Part shown: positions 18,498 to 52,002 of the stretch, piece after piece
Layout of the letters: each line of letters begins with the position of its first letter
Numbering within the stretch: position 1 is the first letter of the stretch
Origin: a virus
Reading direction: 5' to 3' (one strand)
DNA: 52,116 nucleotides
IMG/VR virus record: IMGVR_UViG_3300043438_002211
Coordinates: 1-52,116 of that record
Position numbers and translations under genes: made by a program
Notes under the pieces: generated by a model
Databases searched by the model: none
What the model was told of the DNA's origin: nothing
The model's input: the letters and a program-made list of their open reading frames with translations, nothing else

Positions 18498-19103
18498 ATG
18501 GAAGGATATATCTATTTGGGTGAATACTATGATGTTCTCGGAAGAGAACTCGACACAACCGACAAGAAGATCGGGAAAACAATCTCTTTAACTCAAAGAG
18601 AGTATCAACTTAACAGAACAAAATCTCCAATAGGATATAAGATTATCTCTGCGTATATGGTAGACGATATGGATAAGGTGGAAAAACTATTACACGCCAT
18701 CCTCGATAGTCGAAGATTGGTTGGGGAGTGGTTTAAAGATGATGAGGACACATTAACAGGTGAGTTCATCAACTTTATGAATATCTATGGGGCTACCACT
18801 ATGGATATGAAACAACTCAAAGAAGAACAAATCTCATTAAGTGGTGATGAAAGATTAGTGAAGATCGCCGACTCATTTGGTAAAGATACGATGTTGATCC
18901 GAACATACAAAGGAATCGACTACGACGTACTATTAGATTCAAAAGGAATATTACACTTCAACGGAGAAACCTTTGACACTCCAAATAAGTTCTACAATAG
19001 TGGTTTACTTAAGTTCTTAACTGGTAAACGAGGTAATAGTGGTACCAATCAGGTAACTCAATTTAAAGTTAAGGAAACGAAGGAATCACTAAGAGAATTA
19101 TAA
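18498..19103 (+). CDS. T5orf172/GIY-YIG-type nuclease-like protein, 201 aa
   Basis: Residues 1-95 match the T5orf172 branch of GIY-YIG proteins: GYIYLGEYY, KIGKTISLTQREYQLNRTKSP, then AYMVDDMDKVEKLLHAIL and RLVGEWFKDDED. The R..L, E..LH and EWF positions are the family hallmarks. The C-terminal 70 residues (TYKGIDYDVLLDSKGILHFNGETFDTPNKF) resemble the RAMA/DUF4357-type DNA-associated module. Probably a DNA-cleaving or DNA-binding early protein. Untagged, with a host-like promoter. Confidence 0.8.
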   Translation: MEGYIYLGEYYDVLGRELDTTDKKIGKTISLTQREYQLNRTKSPIGYKIISAYMVDDMDKVEKLLHAILDSRRLVGEWFKDDEDTLTGEFINFMNIYGATTMDMKQLKEEQISLSGDERLVKIADSFGKDTMLIRTYKGIDYDVLLDSKGILHFNGETFDTPNKFYNSGLLKFLTGKRGNSGTNQVTQFKVKETKESLREL

Positions 19104-19122: not shown

Positions 19123-19230
19123 AGTCAGGTGGCGGAATTGGTAACGTACATATAATGAGAGTTCTGCAGGCTCGCCCGAAAAGTAAGTTATATGGTGGTA
19201 TAAATACAGGTTCGAATCCTGTCCTGACTA
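19123..19230 (+). ncRNA. tRNA-like element 1 (no anticodon arm)
   Basis: AGTCAGG (19123-19129) pairs with CCTGACT (19223-19229), followed by an A. A leucine-tRNA-like D arm (GGCGGAATTGGTAACG) and a perfect T arm (ACAGG TTCGAAT CCTGT) are present. The centre has no 7-base anticodon loop; instead CATATAA pairs with TTATATG around about 32 bases. It lies 19 bases after the nuclease stop codon. Probably folded and end-processed like tRNA, but not a decoder. Confidence 0.7.
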
Positions 19231-19234
19231 CATA

Positions 19235-19264
19235 AAAATCCTTCACAATGGTGGGGGATTTTTA
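19235..19264 (+). terminator. intrinsic terminator
   Basis: AAATCC...CAC pairs with GTG...GGATTT and is followed by T-rich sequence. It lies directly after tRNA-like element 1 and before the late-type box at 19273. Confidence 0.75.
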
Positions 19265-19284
19265 TTTTAGTATATTTATTAGAT

Positions 19285-19740
19285 ATGAATCTTAAGGAAC
19301 AAATAAAGAAAGTATTAAGGGAAGAGACAAACATTAAACCTGCGTTAAGAAATCTAATTGATATGGCGGTTGATGGATTAGACGACTTATATTATGATTG
19401 GGCAGAATATGATTGTGGTATGGGAGTATGTTGTGACCCATATGCAATAGGATTTGTAAAACAAACAAGTGAGTATAACGATTACACCTTCAAGTTGGTT
19501 GATGGAGATAAATGGGATGTGTATGGGGATTACCCTGAAGAATTTATTGATGACTTACCTGAAGTATGTTATGACACACCCGACCTTAGAAACCCAAACT
19601 TCAATACAATAATTTTATATGAAGAATTGGCTAGCGAAATTGAGGATTACTTCGGATCGGTTAAAAATTGGGAATCACCTCTATTGGATTTAATAAACGA
19701 AAAGTATCATAGTCACGCAACTAGAATATTATTCATATAA
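19285..19740 (+). CDS. class B tagged acidic protein, 151 aa
   Basis: Tag MNLKEQIKKVLREETNIK with a late-type box at 19273-19279. The body holds a Cys cluster (YDCGMGVCCDPYA) and a C-terminal FGSVKNWESPLLDLINEKY helix of the type seen in sister proteins. Acidic; function unknown. Confidence 0.8.
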   Translation: MNLKEQIKKVLREETNIKPALRNLIDMAVDGLDDLYYDWAEYDCGMGVCCDPYAIGFVKQTSEYNDYTFKLVDGDKWDVYGDYPEEFIDDLPEVCYDTPDLRNPNFNTIILYEELASEIEDYFGSVKNWESPLLDLINEKYHSHATRILFI

Positions 19741-19811
19741 TTCACAATAAAAATCACAAAATAATAGATGTTTTCGTTATTCCATATATTTATTAATTAA
19801 AGTAGACAACT

Positions 19812-20423
19812 ATGGAATTAAATAGATTTAAACAATTATTAGAATCAACAATGGGCGATGCCAAACCATTGATCTCAGAACAAGAAGAAATGGGTTATAC
19901 GGTCAAAAATGACGCAACTTTTGAAAATGCAACTAGTGAGGCTAAACCTGAGTTAAAGATTTTTAAAGGAACTAAGTTTGTTAAAAACGGTGATGTGTTA
20001 GTCGCTAACACTAAGTATCAATTTGTTGATAGTAGAACTGGGGTTAAACTAGGTTATGGACCAAAAGATGCGTTAAAATTTGAGTACGCGGGTAAAGTTA
20101 CTTACAACTGCGCCGAGGGTAAATTTACGGTAAACGCATCTAAAGATAAGTATTTCCAACAATACGGCGGTCTAACAAAAGCTTTAGCTCCATTATGTAA
20201 AACAAAGGTTGCGCCAACGAACACCGAAACCAAATCAAACCATATATGTGACACAGATAAAACAAGTCAATTACAGACAGGTAGATCTTTCAAGTATTGT
20301 AAAAATGGTGAGGATTATTATTTCATCGGAACTGCAGGTGAGTTCCAAACTAAATACCCTGAATGGACACAGGCGAAAGGTACAGGTTTAGAATCAATCA
20401 AGACAAAGATATTCTATAAGTAA
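19812..20423 (+). CDS. FK.LLES-type tagged protein, 203 aa
   Basis: The N-terminus MELNRFKQLLESTMGDAKPL followed by ISEQ is nearly the same as residues 30-47 of the 57-aa protein at 32046 (FKSLLESKLGDSKPL). L-x-E and I-x-E sites are both present. The rest is two beta-rich repeats with paired Cys (YNCAEGKFTV; FKYCKNGEDYYFIGTAGEFQTKYPEW), each resembling a small SH3-like fold. Late-type box at 19787-19793. Probably a virion-associated protein. Confidence 0.8.
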   Translation: MELNRFKQLLESTMGDAKPLISEQEEMGYTVKNDATFENATSEAKPELKIFKGTKFVKNGDVLVANTKYQFVDSRTGVKLGYGPKDALKFEYAGKVTYNCAEGKFTVNASKDKYFQQYGGLTKALAPLCKTKVAPTNTETKSNHICDTDKTSQLQTGRSFKYCKNGEDYYFIGTAGEFQTKYPEWTQAKGTGLESIKTKIFYK

Positions 20424-20450
20424 AATAACATTACATAAAATAAATAATTT

Positions 20451-20482
20451 AATCCTCCACTTGTAAAGATGGGGGATTTTTT
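20451..20482 (+). terminator. intrinsic terminator
   Basis: ATCCTCCA pairs with TGGGGGAT (one G-T pair) and is followed by six T residues. It separates the late-type gene at 19812 from the small-gene block that follows. Confidence 0.75.
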
Positions 20483-20496
20483 ATATATTAGCGGTA

Positions 20497-20898
20497 ATGA
20501 AAGATCTGACGAAATATATTGACTCATTAGTGGAGGGAAATGTGGATAACTATGAGATAAACTTCAAAGATGGGGCGTATGTTGTTACGATCATAATAGA
20601 TATTTCAGATAAAACTTTCCCTGCATATCTTCTTGTGGATATGTTAGCTATGTCACGTAGAGATATAGTTAGAAGAATGTTAAGTGGTTATTTACCTAAA
20701 AATTTATTTGTTGTAGATCACAAAGTGGTTGGTCAGGAGATAAATGTAAAATTAACCTATCCCGATGACATTAGAATAACAGGGTATGTTGATATGGACG
20801 ACATTCAACCACTAAACATCGGTGACTACATTAATATGAGAGTAGATCCTTGTAATATAAACGACATATCTACATTCGTAACATATGATCCATTATGA
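20497..20898 (+). CDS. hypothetical protein, 133 aa
   Basis: Unrecognised. MKDLTKYIDSLVEGNVDNY has a weak resemblance to the tags (L-x-E at SLVEG) but no late-type box. Strand-rich with a hydrophobic FPAYLLVDMLAM segment that is too short for a clear membrane helix. Overlaps the next gene by four bases. Confidence 0.7.
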   Translation: MKDLTKYIDSLVEGNVDNYEINFKDGAYVVTIIIDISDKTFPAYLLVDMLAMSRRDIVRRMLSGYLPKNLFVVDHKVVGQEINVKLTYPDDIRITGYVDMDDIQPLNIGDYINMRVDPCNINDISTFVTYDPL

Positions 20899-21149
20899 AT
20901 AAGTTAGAGAACATAATGTTGAGATACTTTGAGTTAATAAACTCATTACCTTACGATGAGGTAAAGATGGCTACGAGTTTAATGGAACCAATGGGGATTG
21001 TGGTATTAACAATATACGTTAAAACGATGGATGAAAAATACCTGTATCAAAAAATGATAAATAGGAAAAGAGTAATTGATATATTAAATGGTGAGATGTC
21101 ATATATGTTCCCATATGTATTTTTAATGAAGTGTAAAGTAAAAATTTAA
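20895..21149 (+). CDS. hypothetical protein, 84 aa
   Basis: Small unrecognised protein (MNKLENIMLRYFELINSLP...) coupled to the preceding gene by ATGA. Met-rich, mildly basic C-terminus. No domain recognised. Confidence 0.65.
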   Translation: MNKLENIMLRYFELINSLPYDEVKMATSLMEPMGIVVLTIYVKTMDEKYLYQKMINRKRVIDILNGEMSYMFPYVFLMKCKVKI

Positions 21150-21151
21150 AA

Positions 21152-21313
21152 ATGAAAAAGGAATTAAAAGAAGATCTAATAGCATTAACAATATTGGTGG
21201 TGATGTTTTCGGGGTTGGCAATGGGAGTGTTAGGTGGATCATTAACTAGTTCGTTAGGTGTTGCTTTATTTGTGGTGTCGATAATAGTGGCTTACTGGGT
21301 AACATTAGATTGA
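21152..21313 (+). CDS. small two-helix membrane protein, 53 aa
   Basis: MKKELKEDLIALTILVVMFS..., then VLGGSLTSSLGVALFVVSIIVAYW: two hydrophobic segments joined by a Gly/Ser turn. It starts two bases after the preceding stop. Function unknown; small membrane proteins of this kind are common among early phage genes. Confidence 0.65.
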   Translation: MKKELKEDLIALTILVVMFSGLAMGVLGGSLTSSLGVALFVVSIIVAYWVTLD

Positions 21314-21383
21314 TGATTCCGATTGCATAACCTATAATTGGTTTTGGAAATAAAAAAATAATGTATTATATTTGAAAAATATT

Positions 21384-21528
21384 AGTCAGGTGGCGGAATG
21401 GTAGACGCTAACCAAGTAAATCCAAAAGACAGCCTTGCTACTGCAATAGGTGTAGGGGATATGGATTTAATAGTATAATGTGCAGAATGATTACTAACGA
21501 TTTACAGGTTCGAATCCTGTCCTGACTA
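21384..21528 (+). ncRNA. tRNA-like element 2 (95-base insert)
   Basis: The same AGTCAGG/CCTGACT acceptor pair, D arm (GGCGGAATGGTAGACGC) and T arm (ACAGG TTCGAAT CCTGT) as element 1, but with the longest centre. Within it TAAATCC pairs with GGATTTA. No anticodon stem-loop of tRNA geometry is evident. It sits 70 bases after one small membrane gene and 22 bases before the next. Confidence 0.7.
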
Positions 21529-21550
21529 CAAAAAATTAAAACAAATAGAT

Positions 21551-21667
21551 ATGGACTTTGATGAAGAAAAAGAATGGGATAGACTGTGGATAAAACATAG
21601 AAATGCAATGATTCATATGTTAATATGTGGTGTGATACTCGGTTGGTGTATTGGAATTTATTGTTAA
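21551..21667 (+). CDS. small membrane protein, 38 aa
   Basis: MDFDEEKEWDRLWIKHRN is an acidic head, followed by AMIHMLICGVILGWCIGIYC, one membrane helix with two cysteines. It lies between tRNA-like elements 2 and 3, nine bases before the latter. Function unknown. Confidence 0.55.
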   Translation: MDFDEEKEWDRLWIKHRNAMIHMLICGVILGWCIGIYC

Positions 21668-21676
21668 CTAACAAAT

Positions 21677-21713
21677 AGTCAGGTGGTGGAATTGGTAGAC
21701 TCAGTCCTGACTA
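21677..21713 (+). ncRNA. tRNA-like element 3 (37-base minimal copy)
   Basis: AGTCAGG, the D-arm-like sequence GGTGGAATTGGTAGAC, five bases, then CCTGACT and A. Anticodon region, variable region and T arm are all missing, yet the seven acceptor pairs are perfect. This is a stripped copy of the family, sitting exactly between two small genes like its fuller relatives. Confidence 0.6.
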
Positions 21714-21728
21714 CAAAAAATTAAAGAT

Positions 21729-21962
21729 ATGGAACAAGAGGAAAAACAAAAATTGATCAATCTAATGTTTGAGATGGTTTTAGCGACAACTAATGACCCT
21801 GTTTTTTGTAAAAGACCTAGAGGTGAGAGAATGGCTTGGGTTGCAAATAATCTAAGAGATATTGGAATTGACACACACCCAATCGGGATGAGTTGGGGTG
21901 TAATGGTAAGTGAAGACTTTAGAGATACCGTTGAAGTCATCAAAGATAATTTAGATAATTAA
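21729..21962 (+). CDS. hypothetical protein, 77 aa
   Basis: Soluble helical protein beginning MEQEEKQKLINLMFEMVLAT. The middle (GERMAWVANNLRDIGIDTHPIG) and the tail are helical. No known family. Bounded by tRNA-like element 3 (16 bases upstream) and element 4 (four bases downstream). Confidence 0.7.
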   Translation: MEQEEKQKLINLMFEMVLATTNDPVFCKRPRGERMAWVANNLRDIGIDTHPIGMSWGVMVSEDFRDTVEVIKDNLDN

Positions 21963-21966
21963 TCAT

Positions 21967-22063
21967 AGTCAGGTGGCGGAATGGTAGACGCTGATATTTG
22001 AGACTACAAGAAACCTAGGAACGGAAGTGGCAGCTCATACAGGTTCGAATCCTGTCCTGACTA
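21967..22063 (+). ncRNA. tRNA-like element 4
   Basis: Same acceptor, D arm and T arm as elements 1 and 2. The centre (about 47 bases) contains TGAG and CTCA that could pair across it and a palindromic CCTAGG, but no anticodon loop. No gene follows; a 69-base spacer leads to element 5. Confidence 0.65.
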
Positions 22064-22132
22064 CGAAATCCTGAAAATACATACGTCCGTTTACGGCTAT
22101 GGAAGTGGTTGACAGCTGGAAAGACAGCAAAT

Positions 22133-22254
22133 AGTCAGGTGGCGGAAGTGGTGTACGCAGTGGTGTGTTAAATGTGGGAATAGACATAATCCCTAACCCT
22201 GAAAGGGGCTAACTGCTTGTCTCTTAGCTACAGGTTCGATTCCTGTCCTGACTA
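22133..22254 (+). ncRNA. tRNA-like element 5
   Basis: Acceptor AGTCAGG/CCTGACT; T arm ACAGG TTCGATT CCTGT with one loop change. The centre holds GCAGT (22158-22162) that can pair with ACTGC, enclosing a CCC TGAAA GGGG-type hairpin. It ends 18 bases before the next gene. Confidence 0.65.
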
Positions 22255-22272
22255 CAATTAAAAATAAATGTT

Positions 22273-22530
22273 ATGAATATTAAACAATTAAAAGAATCAA
22301 TCTCAAATCTTCCTGATGAAATGGAAGTGGTTTTACAAAAAGATAGTGAAGGTAACGGGTATAGTCCACTTAAAGGTGTTGACTCAGATGCTGTTTATAT
22401 TCCTTATAATACGTGGTCAGGAGATGTTTATTCAATGGGATGGACTTCAGATGAAGCTGATATGTCAGATAAACAATGGCAAGAAATAAAGTCAAAACCA
22501 AGAACTTTGATTTTATATCCTGTCAATTAA
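22273..22530 (+). CDS. conserved phage-type protein, 85 aa
   Basis: MNIKQLKESISNLPDEMEVV, then LQKDSEGNGYSPLKGVDSDA and ending PRTLILYPVN. Small proteins with E/DxxVVLxxDxEGNxxSPL are widespread in phages and described only as hypothetical. Likely a real gene of unknown role, between tRNA-like elements 5 and 6. Confidence 0.75.
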   Translation: MNIKQLKESISNLPDEMEVVLQKDSEGNGYSPLKGVDSDAVYIPYNTWSGDVYSMGWTSDEADMSDKQWQEIKSKPRTLILYPVN

Positions 22531-22539
22531 CATTAACAT

Positions 22540-22640
22540 AGTCAGGTGGCGGAATTGGTAGACGTATCTCACTCAGGTGTAGATTTGGTGAAACATAAAA
22601 TGTATCGAATACATTACAGGTTCGAATCCTGTCCTGACTA
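22540..22640 (+). ncRNA. tRNA-like element 6
   Basis: Acceptor, D arm and T arm as before. The centre has two hairpins: ATCT-CAC with GTG-T-AGAT around a 4-base loop, and AATGTA with TACATT around TCGAA, placed where a long variable arm would be. A CAG occurs in the first loop, but it is a tetraloop, not a 7-base anticodon loop. It lies nine bases after one stop codon and 16 before the next start. Confidence 0.7.
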
Positions 22641-36959: not shown

Positions 36960-39188
36960 ATGAGACATTTATTACTTTTATTTTTATTCCCCCTTTTTGT
37001 TTATTCACAATATTGTCCTGACTTGGGTCCAGATCAATTTTTACCTTGTGGGGTAGGAACAACAACTCTAACGGCTAATTTAAGTCAATGTGGGCCTGGA
37101 GGTCCTAACCCTAAACAAACTACGAATTATGGGGTGACTAACATTCCGTATGTTTCACAAACTAATACAGGGACTCAGTTATTTATGACTGATGATTCAC
37201 AACAGGGTCCATTTAATATTGGGTTTAACTTTTGTTTTTTTGGAACAACATATACTCAATTTTATGTTGGGTCTAATGGGTGGATATCATTCGGTGGGGG
37301 ACAACCAACAACGTTTACATCACAATCAATCCCAACGGGAAATGTGTTAGTCCCTAATAATTGTATTATGGGTCCTTGGCAAGATTGGCATCCAGGGATT
37401 GGTGGTCAGATAAGATATCAATTACAAGGCACTGCTCCTTGTAGGAAGTTAGTTATCAGTTGGATCGGTGTACCTATGTTCCAATGTAATAGTAATTTTG
37501 GAACATTCCATATTGTAATATATGAGACAACAAATATTATTGAAAATCATATCCAAGATAAACCTGATTGTTCTCAATGGCAGAATGGTACGTCAGTTCA
37601 AGGGATACATAACTCAACAGGTACGATTGGAATACCGGTTCCTGGTAGAAACTCAACCTCTTGGACTGCAAATAACGACGCATATCGATGGACGCCAAGT
37701 GGACCTACGGTAAATCCTGTTTTAACTTGGTTTAGAATAGGTAACCCTAACCCAATTGGGACTGGACCGACAATAAATGTAACTCCTCCCGCAATAGGTG
37801 CTCAATATACGTGTCGATATGTCTATCCTATCTGTAATGCGGGGTGGTCAACTTGTAATTCAGTTGCAGGACCAGGTCCTGACACCGTATTTGTTTTACC
37901 GGGTCTACCGAATCTACCTCAACCCACTATAACAACAACAAACCCAACGTGTTATCAGTATTGTGACGGATCAATAAATGTTGTTCCTGTTGGTGGAAAC
38001 GGAGTTCAAACAATTTCGTGGAATAACGGGATACCAAATAACTTTACTAACAACTTTTTATGTTCTGGTGTCTATAACTTTTTAATAACTGACTCTCAAG
38101 GTTGTACCGTAAGTGGGAATGTTACATTAGTGGATCCACCACAAATAATTGTAGACCCTATTGTTGGAACAAGTATCCTATGTTATAACTCAACTACTAA
38201 TCAGTTCACCACCTCGAGTCTAAACCCTAATTTAAATTACGTTTGGACGACAACAAATGGTAATATTACCTCAGGACAAGGGACTCCTCAAGTTAATTTA
38301 GACGTTACGGGTGTTAATGGGGGTAATTACCCTAATATGTTGTCGGTATACGCTGAAAATAACCTTGGATGTTTAAGTCAAACTGAAAATTTCACTATTG
38401 ATGTGTTAAACATACTCCCAATTATCGATCCTCTTGGTCCATATTGTGAATATGATGGGTGTGTTAACATTAATACAACACCTACAGGTGGTATTTTATT
38501 CGGTAATAACGTTTGGGGAACACAATATTGTCCTGACAATGGATTTATTGGGTTAGATAATGTTACTTACTCCTACACTCAGTCAGGATGTATGTTTGAT
38601 ACTACAATCAACGTACAAGTTTACCCAAGACCAACTTTAATTTCGGTAATTGATGGGAGACCAAACGTTAATTATGAGTTTCACGAACTATGTGAGGGTG
38701 ATAGTATTGTCGATTTATATGAAGCAACCTCATCTTTTGGTGGATATAACGAATGGTACGTGTTTGGGGACACATTACAAGGTCCTACAATAAACATTAC
38801 TTGGGATACTGAAGGATTATTTAGTTTTAATGTGGTAAGATGGGATAACGGGTGTGTTTCTTTACCCGAAACAATAGATGTTAACATAGAATTGTGTCCT
38901 GAAGAGTTAATTTACATACCTAATTCATTTACACCCAACGGTGATGAGTATAATCAAACGTTTTCACCTAGATTTACCGCAGGTTTTGACCCATATGACT
39001 TTAATATGAAGGTTTTTAACAGATGGGGTGAGTTAATTTGGGAAAGTAACGACCATAAATCGCCTTGGGATGGGACATACAATGGTAAAATGTGTCCTGA
39101 TGGATCATATAACTGGGTTTTAACGTTTGGACACCCTAAAACGGGTCTAAAAAAAGAAATAAGAGGTAATTTAACTATTACAAGATAG
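36960..39188 (+). CDS. secreted adhesin-like protein with type IX secretion C-terminal domain, 742 aa
   Basis: A signal peptide (MRHLLLLFLFPLFVYSQ, cut near S16) starts the protein. Residues 95-240 resemble a lectin- or nidogen-like beta domain (FYVGSNGWISFGG). A SprB-type repeat follows (CYQYCDGSINVVPVGGNG...CSGVYNFLITDSQGC). Residues 649-742 form a gliding-motility-type C-terminal domain: IPNSFTPNGDEYNQTF, MKVFNRWGELIWES, WDGTYNGKMCPDGSYNW. In Bacteroidota this type B domain directs export through the type IX system and surface attachment. A phage-encoded copy would be displayed on the infected cell or on the particle. Confidence 0.88.
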   Translation: MRHLLLLFLFPLFVYSQYCPDLGPDQFLPCGVGTTTLTANLSQCGPGGPNPKQTTNYGVTNIPYVSQTNTGTQLFMTDDSQQGPFNIGFNFCFFGTTYTQFYVGSNGWISFGGGQPTTFTSQSIPTGNVLVPNNCIMGPWQDWHPGIGGQIRYQLQGTAPCRKLVISWIGVPMFQCNSNFGTFHIVIYETTNIIENHIQDKPDCSQWQNGTSVQGIHNSTGTIGIPVPGRNSTSWTANNDAYRWTPSGPTVNPVLTWFRIGNPNPIGTGPTINVTPPAIGAQYTCRYVYPICNAGWSTCNSVAGPGPDTVFVLPGLPNLPQPTITTTNPTCYQYCDGSINVVPVGGNGVQTISWNNGIPNNFTNNFLCSGVYNFLITDSQGCTVSGNVTLVDPPQIIVDPIVGTSILCYNSTTNQFTTSSLNPNLNYVWTTTNGNITSGQGTPQVNLDVTGVNGGNYPNMLSVYAENNLGCLSQTENFTIDVLNILPIIDPLGPYCEYDGCVNINTTPTGGILFGNNVWGTQYCPDNGFIGLDNVTYSYTQSGCMFDTTINVQVYPRPTLISVIDGRPNVNYEFHELCEGDSIVDLYEATSSFGGYNEWYVFGDTLQGPTINITWDTEGLFSFNVVRWDNGCVSLPETIDVNIELCPEELIYIPNSFTPNGDEYNQTFSPRFTAGFDPYDFNMKVFNRWGELIWESNDHKSPWDGTYNGKMCPDGSYNWVLTFGHPKTGLKKEIRGNLTITR

Positions 39189-48776: not shown

Positions 48777-48850
48777 GGTCCGCTAGCTCAGCTGGATAGA
48801 GCAACTGCCTTCTAAGCAGTAGGTCTCAGGTTCGAATCCTGAGCGGATCA
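48777..48850 (+). tRNA. tRNA-Arg (TCT)
   Basis: Acceptor GGTCCGC/GCGGATC (one G-T), D arm GCTCAGCTGGATAGAGC, anticodon arm ACTGC CTTCTAA GCAGT, T arm CTCAGG TTCGAAT CCTGAG. Reads AGA. No CCA encoded, as for the other tRNAs here. Confidence 0.93.
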
Positions 48851-48864
48851 CTAAAAATTAAGTT

Positions 48865-48969
48865 ATGGAAGATATCTTTGAAGATGTTCACAATGAGTTT
48901 ATTAATTCAGAAGAATTTCTGAATTTTATTAAAGAAATGAACGAATTTGAAGAAAAATTAATAAAATAA
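48865..48969 (+). CDS. micro-protein, 34 aa
   Basis: MEDIFEDVHNEFINSEEFLN then FIKEMNEFEEKLIK: a single acidic helix. It starts 14 bases after tRNA-Arg and ends before the promoter at 48993. Plausible but short. Confidence 0.45.
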   Translation: MEDIFEDVHNEFINSEEFLNFIKEMNEFEEKLIK

Positions 48970-48992
48970 CTTGTCAATTAAAAAAAAATACC

Positions 48993-49000
48993 TATATTTG
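48993..49000 (+). promoter_or_regulatory. Bacteroidota-type promoter (TTG-N19-TATATTTG)
   Basis: TTG 48971-48973, 19-base spacer, TATATTTG 48993-49000, followed by TAGGAG and a 50-base AT-rich leader. Confidence 0.65.
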
Positions 49001-49047
49001 TAGGAGAAATTAAAACTTTTAGTAAAAACGATATAATTATAATAGAA

Positions 49048-49158
49048 ATGAAAACAACTCAAAAACATATGGTCATTTGTAATCCGAGCACTCAGTGGTC
49101 GTTTAATAGCTATAGAACGCTTAAGTCGCGTAGTAGGGCATTTTCATTTATGAGTTGA
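49048..49158 (+). CDS. micro-protein, 36 aa
   Basis: MKTTQKHMVICNPSTQWSFN then SYRTLKSRSRAFSFMS: basic, Ser-rich. It sits between a good promoter (48993) and a terminator (49193), so the unit is transcribed; whether the frame or the RNA is the product is open. Confidence 0.5.
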   Translation: MKTTQKHMVICNPSTQWSFNSYRTLKSRSRAFSFMS

Positions 49159-49192
49159 TATAGATTGACTTAATTATATAAAAGGAATATAA

Positions 49193-49225
49193 GACCCGAA
49201 CTCAAAACAAGTTCGGGTTTTTTTA
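49193..49225 (+). terminator. strong intrinsic terminator
   Basis: CCCGAACT pairs perfectly with AGTTCGGG around CAAAACA, followed by seven T residues. Confidence 0.85.
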
Positions 49226-49238
49226 TACCCAAAAAATC

Positions 49239-49310
49239 GGTCTTTTAGTATAGTTGGTAATACCCCGGCTTTGTAACCCGGAGTCATCAGTTCGAACCTG
49301 ATAGAGACCT
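49239..49310 (+). tRNA. tRNA-Thr (TGT)
   Basis: Acceptor GGTCTTT/AGAGACC, D arm with GTTGGTAA, T arm ATCAG TTCGAAC CTGAT. Anticodon arm CCGG...CCGG with loop TTTGTAA gives TGT (Thr); the inner stem pair is a C-C mismatch, so the isotype is slightly uncertain. Confidence 0.8.
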
Positions 49311-49345
49311 CAAAAGAAAAGTTCTTTGACATATTGGCCATAAAT

Positions 49346-49417
49346 TCTCCCCTCGTCTAATTGGCAGGACACCTGGTTTTGGGCCAGGGAATCAAGGTTC
49401 GAGACCTTGGGGGAGAT
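49346..49417 (+). tRNA. tRNA-Gln (TTG)
   Basis: Acceptor TCTCCCC/GGGGAGA, anticodon arm CCTGG TTTTGGG CCAGG, T arm CAAGG TTCGAGA CCTTG. Reads CAA. Confidence 0.92.
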
Positions 49418-49425
49418 CAATAATT

Positions 49426-49509
49426 GGAAGATGAATCACAGCGGCCTGTGACCCCGTCTTGAAAACGGGCGGTACTGAAAGGTATTGGGATCGACACCTA
49501 CTTCTTCCT
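49426..49509 (+). tRNA. tRNA-Ser (TGA)
   Basis: Acceptor GGAAGA/TCTTCC, D-region TCACA/TGTGA, anticodon arm CCCGT CTTGAAA ACGGG, long variable arm (GGTACT-GAAA-GGTATT) typical of Ser. The T loop (ATCGACA) is unusual. Confidence 0.85.
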
Positions 49510-49513
49510 CTAA

Positions 49514-49570
49514 CTAACACAGAATGAATGATACGAGCCTCACAAGTTCGAAAGGAGTCAGGGTGTTAGT
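49514..49570 (+). other. mini tRNA-like remnant
   Basis: CTAACAC pairs with GTGTTAG around only about 42 bases, with an AAGTTCGAAAG T-loop-like core but no anticodon arm. It sits exactly in a tRNA slot between Ser and Pro, like a shortened tRNA. Confidence 0.45.
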
Positions 49571-49576
49571 TTTTAA

Positions 49577-49652
49577 CTAGGTGTAGAGGAGTCCGGTTTA
49601 TCTCGGGTCGTTTGGGGCGATCAGCACGCAGGTTCGAATCCTGCCACCTAGA
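49577..49652 (+). tRNA. tRNA-Pro (TGG)
   Basis: Acceptor CTAGGTG/CACCTAG, divergent D arm (GAG...CTC), anticodon arm GGTCG TTTGGGG CGATC, T arm GCAGG TTCGAAT CCTGC. Reads CCA. Confidence 0.88.
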
Positions 49653-49667
49653 CAAATAAATAAACAA

Positions 49668-49856
49668 ATGATAACAAACGAAGAATGTGAAAAAATTTCT
49701 ATCAAAGGTAAGTTAAGTGGTTTAAATAATTACTACCTTAGCCTTGTTAGAATCAGTAAGGATACAACTTATCGTGGTGATCTTACAGAAGAACTTAAAA
49801 GAGTAGAAACAGAAATAAACATAAACAAACAAAAACTAATGTCTTATGGAAAGTGA
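49668..49856 (+). CDS. hypothetical protein, 62 aa
   Basis: MITNEECEKISIKGKLSGLN then a coiled-coil-like helix pair (LTEELKRVETEININKQKLM). It is wedged between tRNA-Pro and tRNA-Lys with 15 bases upstream, so expressed with the array. Function unknown. Confidence 0.6.
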   Translation: MITNEECEKISIKGKLSGLNNYYLSLVRISKDTTYRGDLTEELKRVETEININKQKLMSYGK

Positions 49857-49884
49857 CAAGGACGACAAGAGTCGTAAACAGAAA

Positions 49885-49959
49885 GATCTCGTAGCTCAGT
49901 TGGTTTAGAGCACCTAACTTTTAATTAGGGAGTCGTGGGTTCGAGCCCCACCGGGATCA
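49885..49959 (+). tRNA. tRNA-Lys (TTT)
   Basis: Acceptor GATCTCG/CGGGATC (one T-G), D arm GCTCAGTTGGTTTAGAGC, anticodon arm CCTAA CTTTTAA TTAGG, T arm GTGGG TTCGAGC CCCAC. Confidence 0.93.
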
Positions 49960-50013
49960 CATAGTAGTTTTGAGGTTGGCGAATTCTACTTAAAAAAAAT
50001 AATCCATCCACCA

Positions 50014-50087
50014 GCACTCTTAGCTCAGATGGTAGTAGCGGTTGTCTTACATACAACAGGTCACAGGTTCGATCCCTGTAGAGTGCA
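50014..50087 (+). tRNA. tRNA-Val (TAC)
   Basis: Acceptor GCACTCT/AGAGTGC, anticodon arm GTTGT CTTACAT ACAAC, T arm ACAGG TTCGATC CCTGT. Reads GTA. Confidence 0.93.
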
Positions 50088-50094
50088 CAGAAAA

Positions 50095-50177
50095 GGGAGT
50101 GTTGAGCAATTGGTTGGCTCAGCGGACTGTAAATCCGTCGTCGTGAGACCTTGGGGGTTCGAGTCCCTCCTCTCCCA
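50095..50177 (+). tRNA. tRNA-Tyr (GTA)
   Basis: GGGAG/CTCCC acceptor core, anticodon arm GCGGA CTGTAAA TCCGT, long variable arm, T arm GGGGG TTCGAGT CCCTC-like. The long variable arm and GTA agree on Tyr. Confidence 0.9.
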
Positions 50178-50267
50178 CTAGTGAAAAATGTCGGTTCGAA
50201 TCCGTCAGTAGTTTAATTGGTAAAACAACCCGGCAGGGTGATGGGGGTTCGAGTCCTCCCTTAGTGT
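50178..50267 (+). other. anomalous tRNA-like segment (two T arms)
   Basis: Two T arms follow each other: CGG TTCGAAT CCG (50193-50208) and GGGGG TTCGAGT CCTCC (50243-50259), with a D-arm-like GTTTAATTGGTAAAAC between. ACTAGTG can pair with CAGTAGT around the first T arm as a minihelix; a weak CACTAG/TTAGTG pairing spans the whole. No anticodon loop is evident (ACCCGGCAGGGT instead). A degenerate or fused tRNA. Confidence 0.45.
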
Positions 50268-50293
50268 AATCAGGTAACACATTCAAGTTATTT

Positions 50294-50365
50294 GGACAAG
50301 TAGCTCAATGGCAGAGCCCTCGACTGTTAATCGAGTGGTTGAAGGTTCGAGTCCTTCCTTGTCCG
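50294..50365 (+). tRNA. tRNA-Asn (GTT)
   Basis: Acceptor GGACAAG/CTTGTCC, anticodon arm CTCGA CTGTTAA TCGAG, T arm GAAGG TTCGAGT CCTTC. Confidence 0.93.
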
Positions 50366-50477
50366 CAAAGATACAATGTTGGGGTCCCCAGTGGTAACGG
50401 TATGAACTATAGTAAGTAGACCACAAGAATCTAGTAAGAAGTGAAAGATGGGTTCCTCACGACTAAAGTATCTAATT
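50366..50477. other. structured spacer between tRNAs
   Basis: AGATAC (50369) can pair with GTATCT (50468) around about 95 bases containing TGGGGTCCCCA and a D-arm-like GTGGTAACGG. It shares its opening GATACAATG with the element at 50932. No gene; possibly a second family of structured RNA or a decayed tRNA. Confidence 0.4.
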
Positions 50478-50550
50478 GTTCACGTAGCTCAATTGGTAGA
50501 GCGCCGATCTGATACGTCGGAGGTAATGGGATCGTAACCCGTCGTGAACA
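50478..50550 (+). tRNA. tRNA-Ile (GAT)
   Basis: Acceptor GTTCACG/CGTGAAC, D arm GCTCAATTGGTAGAGC, anticodon arm CCGAT CTGATAC GTCGG, T arm with loop ATCGTAA (unusual). Confidence 0.92.
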
Positions 50551-50608
50551 CAAAAAGGGGAATAACTTGTGTGGGTGCCCCAACTACTGCAGTAGTACCA
50601 CACTCTAT
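50551..50608. other. hairpin-rich tRNA spacer
   Basis: GTGTGG pairs with CCACAC and encloses a perfect palindrome (ACTACTGCAGTAGT). No gene or recognised RNA. Confidence 0.4.
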
Positions 50609-50697
50609 GGAAAGTAATCCCTGAAGGCGACGGGACTTGTTTGCTAAACAATGTGATCGGTGAGAAACCGATTGTGGATCGTTACCACTGCTTTCCT
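50609..50697 (+). tRNA. tRNA-Ser (GCT)
   Basis: Acceptor GGAAAGT/GCTTTCC, anticodon region TTGT TTGCTAA ACAA with GCT, long variable arm ATCGGT-GAGA-ACCGAT, T arm GTGG ATCGTTA CCAC. Diverged but complete in layout; reads AGC/AGT. Confidence 0.8.
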
Positions 50698-50702
50698 CAA
50701 CT

Positions 50703-50770
50703 CCCGTATGATCAGGGATCAAAGTTGGCTCATATCCGACTTTAGAGTGGTTCGATACCACTATACGGGA
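50703..50770 (+). tRNA. unusual tRNA with CAT anticodon (Met or Ile2)
   Basis: Acceptor CCCGTAT/ATACGGG and T arm AGTGG TTCGATA CCACT are perfect. The anticodon arm is eight pairs long (AAAGTTGG/CCGACTTT) around the 7-base loop CTCATAT, and the D arm is a dwarf of 11 bases (GATC AGG GATC). 68 bases in all. Whether charged with Met or, after lysidine editing, Ile cannot be read. Confidence 0.65.
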
Positions 50771-50778
50771 CTTACATG

Positions 50779-50851
50779 GTGTATGTAGCTCAGTTGGCAG
50801 AGTGCTTGATTGTGATTCAAGAGGTCATGGGTTCGACCCCCATCATACACA
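50779..50851 (+). tRNA. tRNA-His (GTG)
   Basis: Acceptor GTGTATG/CATACAC with an extra G before it (G-1, as in His tRNAs), anticodon arm CTTGA TTGTGAT TCAAG, T arm ATGGG TTCGACC CCCAT. Confidence 0.93.
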
Positions 50852-50856
50852 CAACA

Positions 50857-50931
50857 TACCTTCGTAGTTAAATAGAATAGAACCTACGGTTACGACCCGT
50901 AAGATGTGAGTTTGAATCTCGCCGAAGGTAC
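50857..50931 (+). tRNA. tRNA-Arg (ACG)
   Basis: Acceptor TACCTTC/GAAGGTA, anticodon arm TACGG TTACGAC CCGTA, T arm GTGAG TTTGAAT CTCGC. Reads CGN if A34 is edited to inosine by a TadA-type enzyme. The D arm is weak. Confidence 0.85.
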
Positions 50932-51086
50932 AAAAGATGATACAATGCGTAGAATGATAGACGTGGAGAGACGTGTCGCAAGGGTACACACTAAGGACAA
51001 GTAATAATGCTCAACTCTCTTATGGTGTGTGAAGCGTCGTAGAAATACGAATCCCAGATTCCTGATAAAGTCATTCATCATCTTTT
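50932..51086. ncRNA. structured RNA element closed by a long stem
   Basis: CAAAAGATGAT at the left and ATCATCTTTT at the right form a 10-11 bp stem, extended by AATG/CATT. Inside are ACACAC-TAAG with CTTA-TG-GTGTGT, CGTA-GAAA-TACG with a stable tetraloop, and GAATC-CCA-GATTC. No gene; a separate RNA type within the tRNA array. Confidence 0.5.
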
Positions 51087-51090
51087 ATTT

Positions 51091-51162
51091 ACCCCTTTCG
51101 TATAACGGAAGTACAACACTCTTCTAAGGTGTCAGGTCGGAGTTCGAATCTCTGAGGGGGTA
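51091..51162 (+). tRNA. tRNA-Arg (TCT), second copy
   Basis: Acceptor ACCCCTT/AGGGGGT, anticodon arm ACACT CTTCTAA GGTGT, T arm with TTCGAAT. Sequence differs throughout from the Arg(TCT) at 48777, so not a recent duplicate. Confidence 0.88.
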
Positions 51163-51176
51163 CAATAAACTAAAAA

Positions 51177-51212
51177 TTGCTACACTAAACTTTGTTAGTT
51201 TATCGTAGCAAA
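51177..51212 (+). other. two-step hairpin
   Basis: TTGCTAC pairs with GTAGCAA and TAAACT with AGTTTA inside it, followed by A residues rather than T. It could protect an RNA end or separate tRNAs. Confidence 0.5.
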
Positions 51213-51229
51213 AATAGGTTTATCATACG

Positions 51230-51298
51230 CGTCTCTGGTGTAACGGTAGCATGATGGATTCCAAACCCATCGGTCAGGGTTCGAAACCTTGGGGGCGT
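51230..51298 (+). tRNA. tRNA-Trp (CCA)
   Basis: Acceptor CGTCTCT/GGGGGCG with several G-T pairs, anticodon arm ATGGA TTCCAAA CCCAT, T arm CAGGG TTCGAAA CCTTG. Anticodon CCA reads UGG, so the standard code is kept. Confidence 0.85.
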
Positions 51299-51397
51299 GC
51301 ATAGGACGGGAGACAAGTGTTGGGGGTACAACCGTTAGGATACCCCAACCGAGTTCTCCCTGAAGAAATTAAATTTGGCAGTTTAAAAAGAAATTTG

Positions 51398-51405
51398 TAT
51401 CTTTG
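51398..51405 (+). promoter_or_regulatory. Bacteroidota-type promoter (TTG-N20-TATCTTTG)
   Basis: TTG 51375-51377, spacer 20, TATCTTTG 51398-51405, start codon four bases later. Confidence 0.65.
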
Positions 51406-51409
51406 TCTT

Positions 51410-51913
51410 ATGAAAACAAATTTACCATACTGTTCAAATAACGTTGGAATCATTGGTTATCAGGATTCCGAAATTGCGAAAAAAGAAAAAAACGATTGTG
51501 TTGTGAGGGCATTTGCATCGGCATTTGAAATCCCTTATGATAAGGCCCACAAATACGTTAAAGAAAAGTTTGGGAGAAAAGATTATTGTGGTACTTATGG
51601 TACCGTTTTTACAATGGTTAAGTTGGCAAAAAAACAAACTCAAATAAACTATAAGAAGATTAAGCCAATTGGGACTCCCAAAACGATAGCAAACCACAAA
51701 GTATATACTTTGGATTATATGGTTAAAGTAAAAGGTAAAAAAGTTAATAGACAAATGACCGTTGGGACATTTATAAAAGAAAAACCATTCGGAACATTTT
51801 TTGTGTTGGTTGATGGTCACGCTTTTACCATTAAAGATGGGATCGTACATGGTAATTATGAAGATTCAACCAAAAAAAGAAAAATTATGAAACACGCATT
51901 TCAAATTAAATAA
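51410..51913 (+). CDS. putative cysteine-peptidase-like protein, 167 aa
   Basis: Start ATG 51410, directly after the promoter; a longer frame from 51317 would cross it. KNDCVVRAFASAFEIPYDKA places a Cys (C30) at the head of a helix, and LVDGHAFTIKDGIVHGNYED supplies a His, the arrangement of small papain-like/C39-type phage peptidases. The rest is basic. Substrate unknown, activity inferred from two residues. It is followed at once by tRNA-Phe. Confidence 0.7.
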   Translation: MKTNLPYCSNNVGIIGYQDSEIAKKEKNDCVVRAFASAFEIPYDKAHKYVKEKFGRKDYCGTYGTVFTMVKLAKKQTQINYKKIKPIGTPKTIANHKVYTLDYMVKVKGKKVNRQMTVGTFIKEKPFGTFFVLVDGHAFTIKDGIVHGNYEDSTKKRKIMKHAFQIK

Positions 51914-51986
51914 GGGGTTGTGGCAGATCAGGTGATTGCGCTGGACTGAAAATCCAGAGGAATGGGTTCGATACCCGTCAGCCCCA
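51914..51986 (+). tRNA. tRNA-Phe (GAA)
   Basis: Acceptor GGGGTTG/CAGCCCC, anticodon arm CTGGA CTGAAAA TCCAG, T arm ATGGG TTCGATA CCCGT. It begins at the base after the upstream stop codon. Confidence 0.93.
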
Positions 51987-52002
51987 CAAAAAAATAGATA
52001 GT

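What the first reader, a model, noticed from the sequence alone, without database searches (positions are those of the whole stretch)
19123..22640. Six tRNA-like elements without anticodon arms punctuate a block of small genes
All six share a perfect AGTCAGG/CCTGACT acceptor and a Leu-like D arm; five share the T arm. Their centres (about 5 to 95 bases) differ completely and lack a tRNA anticodon loop. They sit within 4-25 bases of gene ends and starts, alternating gene, element, gene. This matches the tRNA-punctuation model of mitochondria: RNase P and RNase Z would cut the elements out, freeing separate mRNAs. Other options are decoys for tRNA nucleases, or variable-centre RNAs whose inserts are the functional part.
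Basis: partly seen in the sequence, partly recalled or inferred. Interest (0 to 1): 0.93.

Follow-up and report, generated by a model that had tools for sequence, protein, structure and literature searches.

The report
Phage RNA cassettes on tRNA scaffolds
Many uncultured phages carry small RNA genes that keep the top half of a tRNA but replace the codon-reading half with one of very many different structured RNA pieces, which are swapped between phages; this appears to be a large undescribed class of viral RNA whose job is not yet known.

Summary
The six elements are real. All have the perfect AGTCAGG/CCTGACT acceptor and a D arm; five have the T arm; none has a normal anticodon arm. They are not local oddities. 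Their flanks match those of the canonical tRNA genes of the same phages, so tRNA-type processing is likely. Two window centres (E1, E5) recur in unrelated phages, always inside a tRNA scaffold, even where the acceptor sequence has changed; E1 shows compensatory changes in scaffold and insert stem. In one phage group a single slot with about 90% identical flanks holds eight unrelated centres. This supports interchangeable RNA cassettes on a tRNA top half, the insert being the functional part, rather than mRNA punctuation: E1 is followed at once by a terminator, E4 and E5 adjoin without a gene, E2 has its own promoter-like site, and many relatives lie near tRNA clusters. The molecular target is unknown. 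T4 RNA C (species 1), an old orphan stable RNA, ends in a similar anticodon-less fold and is the closest precedent found.

The parts
19123..19230 (+). E1: tRNA-like element (acceptor, D arm, 58-nt insert, T arm, discriminator A)
   Evidence: Rfam tRNA 43.6 bits; family alignment with compensatory changes
19148..19205 (+). E1 insert: 8-bp stem CATATAAT/GTTATATG, conserved GAGTTCTGC(A/G)G(G/A)CTC hairpin, 3' linker GTGGTATAAAT
   Evidence: found in 19 IMG/VR loci plus MW202828, always inside a tRNA scaffold
19232..19265 (+). intrinsic terminator directly after E1
   Evidence: 15-pair stem, T tail; shuffles give 1.7 such sites in the region, so a consensus match only
21343..21374 (+). promoter-like site of Bacteroidota type (TTTG, 20 nt, TATATTTG), 9 nt before E2
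   Evidence: TAnnTTTG enriched upstream of relatives, 36 of 338 against about 10 in shuffles; consensus match only
21384..21528 (+). E2: tRNA-like element with ~95-nt insert
   Evidence: Rfam tRNA only 17 bits
21677..21713 (+). E3: 37-nt form with acceptor and D arm only, no T arm (possibly a deletion remnant)
   Evidence: no other such form in the held loci except copies of the same phage
21967..22063 (+). E4: tRNA-like element with ~47-nt insert
   Evidence: Rfam tRNA 38.6 bits
22108..22128 (+). GTTGACA plus hairpin with GAAAGA loop just upstream of E5, shared with L124 and L379
22133..22254 (+). E5: tRNA-like element with strongly conserved insert
   Evidence: Rfam tRNA 35.1 bits
22159..22229 (+). 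E5 insert: closing stem AGTGGT/ACTGCT, GGGA/TCCC hairpin, variable CCC..GGG hairpin, possible pseudoknot AGACA/TGTCT
   Evidence: all cells pair, but little covariation; model R1 hits only scaffolded copies
22540..22640 (+). E6: tRNA-like element with ~50-nt insert
   Evidence: Rfam tRNA 40.1 bits

Best explanation
The elements are genes for small stable RNAs built on the top half of a class-II (Leu-like) tRNA: acceptor, T arm and D-arm elbow. The anticodon half is replaced by a structured insert. Shown by sequence: the architecture, its abundance in phages, tRNA-like flanks, conservation of E1-type and E5-type inserts, and exchange of inserts at a fixed genomic slot. Inferred: host RNase P and RNase Z cut the RNA out of longer transcripts, CCA is added, and the tRNA cap gives stability and perhaps protein binding. 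The insert is then the working part, different in each element, exchanged between phages by recombination in the shared scaffold ends. The rapid swapping suggests a role in conflict with hosts or rival phages. The target of any insert is not known.
For: Flanks of 288 elements: -1 pyrimidine 94%, A at -4 70%, C74 99%; 411 canonical tRNAs of the same loci: 79%, 70% and 99.5%. Elbow kept: U8, A14, A15 and T at position 48 (161 of 177). E1 family: 12 rows, 99.4% of cells paired, 9 pairs with both sides changed in acceptor, D, insert and T stems, 0 of 500 shuffles. The complete circular podovirus MW202828 carries an E1 insert under acceptor AGTGCAG/CTGCACT. E5 core is near invariant in about six lineages, one with acceptor GGTTGAG/CTCAACC. 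R1 and R2 models hit only scaffolded copies. Slot swap: 10 distinct elements (8 unrelated insert types) in 11 loci, flanks 88-100% and 79-100% identical. Inserts fold better than control windows (mean z -0.82 against -0.13, p 4e-10).
Against: No RNA data: transcription, cleavage and stability are inferred. Insert-end closing helices are not more common than in shuffles, so there is no common insert fold; 184 of 213 insert clusters are singletons, for which function is unproven. The E1 and E5 sets were found with exact patterns, which inflates conservation inside those patterns. E5 covariation is weak. No gene family is linked to the elements.
Confidence: 0.68

Rival explanations
1. tRNA punctuation: the elements exist to be cut by RNase P and RNase Z so that polycistronic phage transcripts fall into separate mRNAs; the centre is neutral filler.
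For: tRNA-like flanks at both ends; E3, E4 and E6 adjoin genes by 4-16 nt; elements nearly always on one strand of a locus (106 of 107 loci).
Against: Conserved, covarying inserts; E1 followed by a terminator; E4-E5 without a gene between; own promoter-like sites; many elements near tRNA clusters; an acceptor plus T arm alone would suffice for cutting.
Confidence: 0.12
2. Decoys that occupy tRNA-binding host enzymes: defence nucleases acting on the acceptor, elbow or T loop, or aminoacyl-tRNA synthetases (LeuRS does not need the anticodon), with the insert only a spacer or nuclease bait.
For: Leu-like D arm, A73 in 93% and an intact elbow; phage tRNAs that evade tRNA-targeting defences are described (PMC10264068).
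Against: Anticodon arms are not clearly enriched in inserts (11 vs 5.6), so anticodon nucleases are unlikely targets; does not explain insert families conserved across different acceptors.
Confidence: 0.12
3. Decaying tRNA genes: pseudogenes or chimeras produced by recombination in phage tRNA arrays, without function.
For: A few inserts hold a second T arm (7 of 285 vs 0.4 in shuffles); E3 lacks the T arm; at least one canonical-looking tRNA (L135, Lys-type arm) has the AGTCAGG acceptor.
Against: The acceptor is perfectly paired in nearly all and changes by compensation; E5 core unchanged across unrelated phages; processing flanks kept.
Confidence: 0.05
4. Exchangeable units of a mobile element: the scaffold ends are recognised by an enzyme (for example a homing endonuclease) that moves the insert.
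For: Constant ends, variable centre, slot swap; a GIY-YIG-type gene precedes E1, as segB lies in the T4 tRNA cluster.
Against: No common neighbouring gene (383 clusters among 469 neighbours); ends differ in some copies while the insert stays.
Confidence: 0.03

Closest known systems
Phage T4 RNA C (species 1 RNA), annotated 'small, stable RNA' in the T4 tRNA cluster
   Same: Its last 94 nt (NC_000866 complement of 70908-71001) fold as an 8-bp acceptor, T arm and a hairpin without an anticodon loop; its annotated 3' end is exactly the discriminator A.
   Different: It has 45 nt of extra 5' sequence, no Leu-like D arm, and no known set of interchangeable inserts. The tRNA-like reading is computed here; its function is unknown.
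tmRNA (SsrA)
   Same: Upper half of a tRNA with the anticodon arm replaced by an insert; RNase P processing (PMC3985003).
   Different: tmRNA holds a reading frame and pseudoknots in several hundred bases and is charged with alanine; these inserts are mostly 20-110 nt and do not match the Rfam tmRNA model.
Engineered tRNA scaffold for recombinant RNA (used in PMC3753655)
   Same: RNA of interest placed where the anticodon arm was, to be processed and protected as a tRNA.
   Different: Man-made; these are natural, numerous and exchanged between viruses.
Canonical phage-encoded tRNA genes
   Same: Same flanking processing signals, near or in the same arrays.
   Different: No anticodon arm, so no decoding role.
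Mitochondrial tRNA punctuation
   Same: tRNA-like structures beside genes in polycistronic units.
   Different: There the tRNAs are functional tRNAs; here inserts are the conserved part and many elements lie away from gene junctions.

Membership tests
canonical tRNA | acceptor, D and T arms with elbow contacts | tested here: met
   Rfam tRNA above cut-off for four of six
canonical tRNA | anticodon arm with 7-nt loop | tested here: not met
   ARAGORN none; 11 of 285 inserts against 5.6 in shuffles
intron-containing tRNA | removal of an insert restores an anticodon arm; known intron class | tested here: not met
   no ARAGORN call, no Rfam intron; splicing itself cannot be tested
tmRNA | match to tmRNA model, tag reading frame | tested here: not met
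tRNA punctuation system | elements lie between genes and separate their mRNAs | tested here: not met
   E1 before a terminator, E4-E5 adjacent; 47% of relatives within 1.5 kb of a canonical tRNA
tRNA punctuation system | cleavage at both ends by RNase P and RNase Z | not testable with these tools
   flanks are compatible
T4 RNA C-like stable RNA | tRNA-like 3' domain without anticodon arm in a phage tRNA region | tested here: met
   similarity of fold only, no sequence homology shown
T4 RNA C-like stable RNA | accumulates as a stable RNA in infection | not testable with these tools
   no RNA data for these phages
described Rfam family of small RNA in the insert | insert matches a curated RNA family | tested here: not met
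bacterial Y RNA (YrlA) | Ro60-binding stem with tRNA-like module | not tested
   considered from memory only; no Y RNA match appeared in the Rfam scans

The most novel reading that the evidence does not exclude
Aquatic phages, largely of Bacteroidota, draw on a common pool of roughly a thousand or more interchangeable RNA effectors (Chao1 about 1,060 insert families among sampled loci, a rough figure), displayed on a tRNA top half and swapped at fixed genome slots. This would be an RNA counterpart of the hypervariable anti-defence protein loci.
Probability: 0.3. Interest if true: 0.95.

Novelty: categorically new. Interest (0 to 1): 0.86.

Why it matters
If confirmed, it is a large, unannotated class of viral non-coding RNA that tRNA finders miss or misname, with a natural tRNA scaffold carrying exchangeable RNA modules. 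It would give a place to look for RNA-based weapons or counter-defences of phages, supply many tRNA-capped folds for study, and suggest a frame for the function of T4 RNA C, an old unexplained stable RNA.

Tried and rejected
Intron-containing tRNAs: no intron or anticodon arm found. Known ribozyme, riboswitch or sRNA inserts: none in Rfam. A common motif in inserts: no universal k-mer. A common closing helix: not above shuffles. Anticodon decoys: weak. A linked protein family: none among neighbours. Host origin of the E5 insert: no match in 295 genomes of the class of L231 (an empty answer without a positive control). Close relatives of this phage with a diverged array: only copies of the same phage, 100% identical. 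Cultured or named phages: E5 none, E1 one. Literature in the open library: nothing describing these elements.

Full report
Observation. The window is a 52-kb IMG/VR virus fragment of a phage probably infecting Bacteroidota (a CHU_C type IX secretion domain at 36960-39185). Six elements with a perfect 7-bp AGTCAGG/CCTGACT acceptor lie between 19123 and 22640. Five carry the T arm. E3 (21677-21713) is a 37-nt form with only acceptor and D arm. ARAGORN calls none. The Rfam tRNA model accepts four, treating the centre as an insertion.

Not a local oddity. A wider detector found 350 unique sequences. In 50 contigs searched whole, 47 had copies, up to 14 each. By contrast the 3' motif occurs in only 8 of 84,980 bacterial and archaeal species genomes, all metagenome-assembled. 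One complete circular podovirus in the public phage set carries one, unannotated, which argues against an assembly artefact. The AGTCAGG acceptor was the search seed, so its dominance is partly ascertained; but among copies found by their insert alone most still have it, with exceptions AGTCAGA, AGTGCAG and GGTTGAG. One contig uses AGTCTTG or AGTCCTG with CAGGACT in several elements.

Processing signals. Upstream and downstream of 288 elements the bases follow a pattern: T or C at -1 (94%), A at -4 (70%), A73 (93%), C74 (99%), A75. The 411 canonical tRNA genes in the same loci show the same pattern (79% pyrimidine at -1, A at -4 70%, C74 99.5%). The elbow bases U8, A14, A15 and T48 are kept (T48 in 161 of 177). 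The inference is that host RNase P and the 3' tRNA enzymes would treat these RNAs as tRNAs. No RNA data were available to show it.

The insert is the conserved part in the families that could be followed. E1's insert recurs in 19 IMG/VR loci, always in a tRNA scaffold, and in podovirus MW202828 under a different acceptor. In 12 aligned rows 99.4% of cells pair; nine pairs have changes on both sides, spread over acceptor, D stem, insert stem and T stem; no shuffle out of 500 and no slid register reaches this. E5's insert recurs in 13 contigs of about six lineages, nearly invariant, with a variable side hairpin and in one case an entirely different acceptor. Its proposed helices all pair but hardly vary, so the pseudoknot is a suggestion only. 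Insert-only covariance models hit nothing outside scaffolds in 1.9 Mb of held DNA. The sets were collected with exact patterns, so invariance inside those patterns is by construction.

Diversity and exchange. 260 inserts fall into 213 clusters, 184 of them single, which gives a rough Chao1 of about 1,060. In one group of related phages the same slot, with flanks 88-100% and 79-100% identical, holds ten distinct elements of eight unrelated insert types. The flanks continue unbroken up to the first and from the last acceptor base, and a TATATTTG site lies 4 nt before the element. The insert type at this slot in L019 and L063 also occurs in an unrelated phage (L117). Inserts are thus exchanged as units. 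They are more structured than control windows (mean z -0.82 against -0.13, p 4e-10) but share no motif and no common closing helix.

Reading. The best account is a class of tRNA-capped small RNAs with interchangeable structured inserts. Punctuation is at most a side effect. Anticodon decoys are unlikely, since anticodon arms are near chance frequency; decoys for enzymes that touch only the elbow or acceptor remain possible. What the inserts act on is unknown; rapid exchange at fixed slots resembles loci used in conflict, and that is inference.

Closest known. T4 RNA C (species 1), annotated only as a small stable RNA beside the T4 tRNAs, has a 94-nt 3' part that folds as acceptor, T arm and a hairpin without an anticodon loop, ending exactly at the discriminator base. 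tmRNA and the engineered tRNA scaffold share the principle. No paper describing the present elements was found in the open library; subscription papers and preprints were mostly not searchable, so novelty is provisional.

Noticed in passing
window 50179-50265: In the tRNA cluster, a stretch with two T arms (GTCGGTTCGAATCCGTC and GGGGGTTCGAGTCCTCC) and a D-arm-like piece between them, not called by ARAGORN; another odd tRNA-like gene.
   Followed up: partly
window 18498-19103: Gene with T5orf172/MUG113 (GIY-YIG-type) domain directly upstream of E1; T4 has GIY-YIG segB in its tRNA cluster.
   Followed up: no
window 19285, 23056 and other genes: Several proteins begin with similar short motifs (MNLKEQIKKVLREE, MNLQENIQRIREMMG) after a TATATTTATTA box; possible capsid-targeting N-termini and late promoters.
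   Followed up: no
L061 5724-6218: A phage-encoded tmRNA (Rfam RF00023, 68.5 bits) in a tRNA-rich phage that also has many of the elements.
   Followed up: no
L024, L056, L061, L111, L122, L164, L205: Some elements carry a further insertion inside the D loop, and a few contain a complete second T arm, like a tRNA nested in a tRNA.
   Followed up: partly
L353 (MW202828.1) 630-715: Directly after the E1-type element a second short tRNA-like stretch with D and T arms and hardly any centre, followed by a terminator-like hairpin.
   Followed up: no
window 48777-51987: Fifteen canonical tRNA genes; in the phages examined canonical tRNAs keep C74 (99.5%) without an encoded CCA, an unusually strict pattern.
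   Followed up: partly
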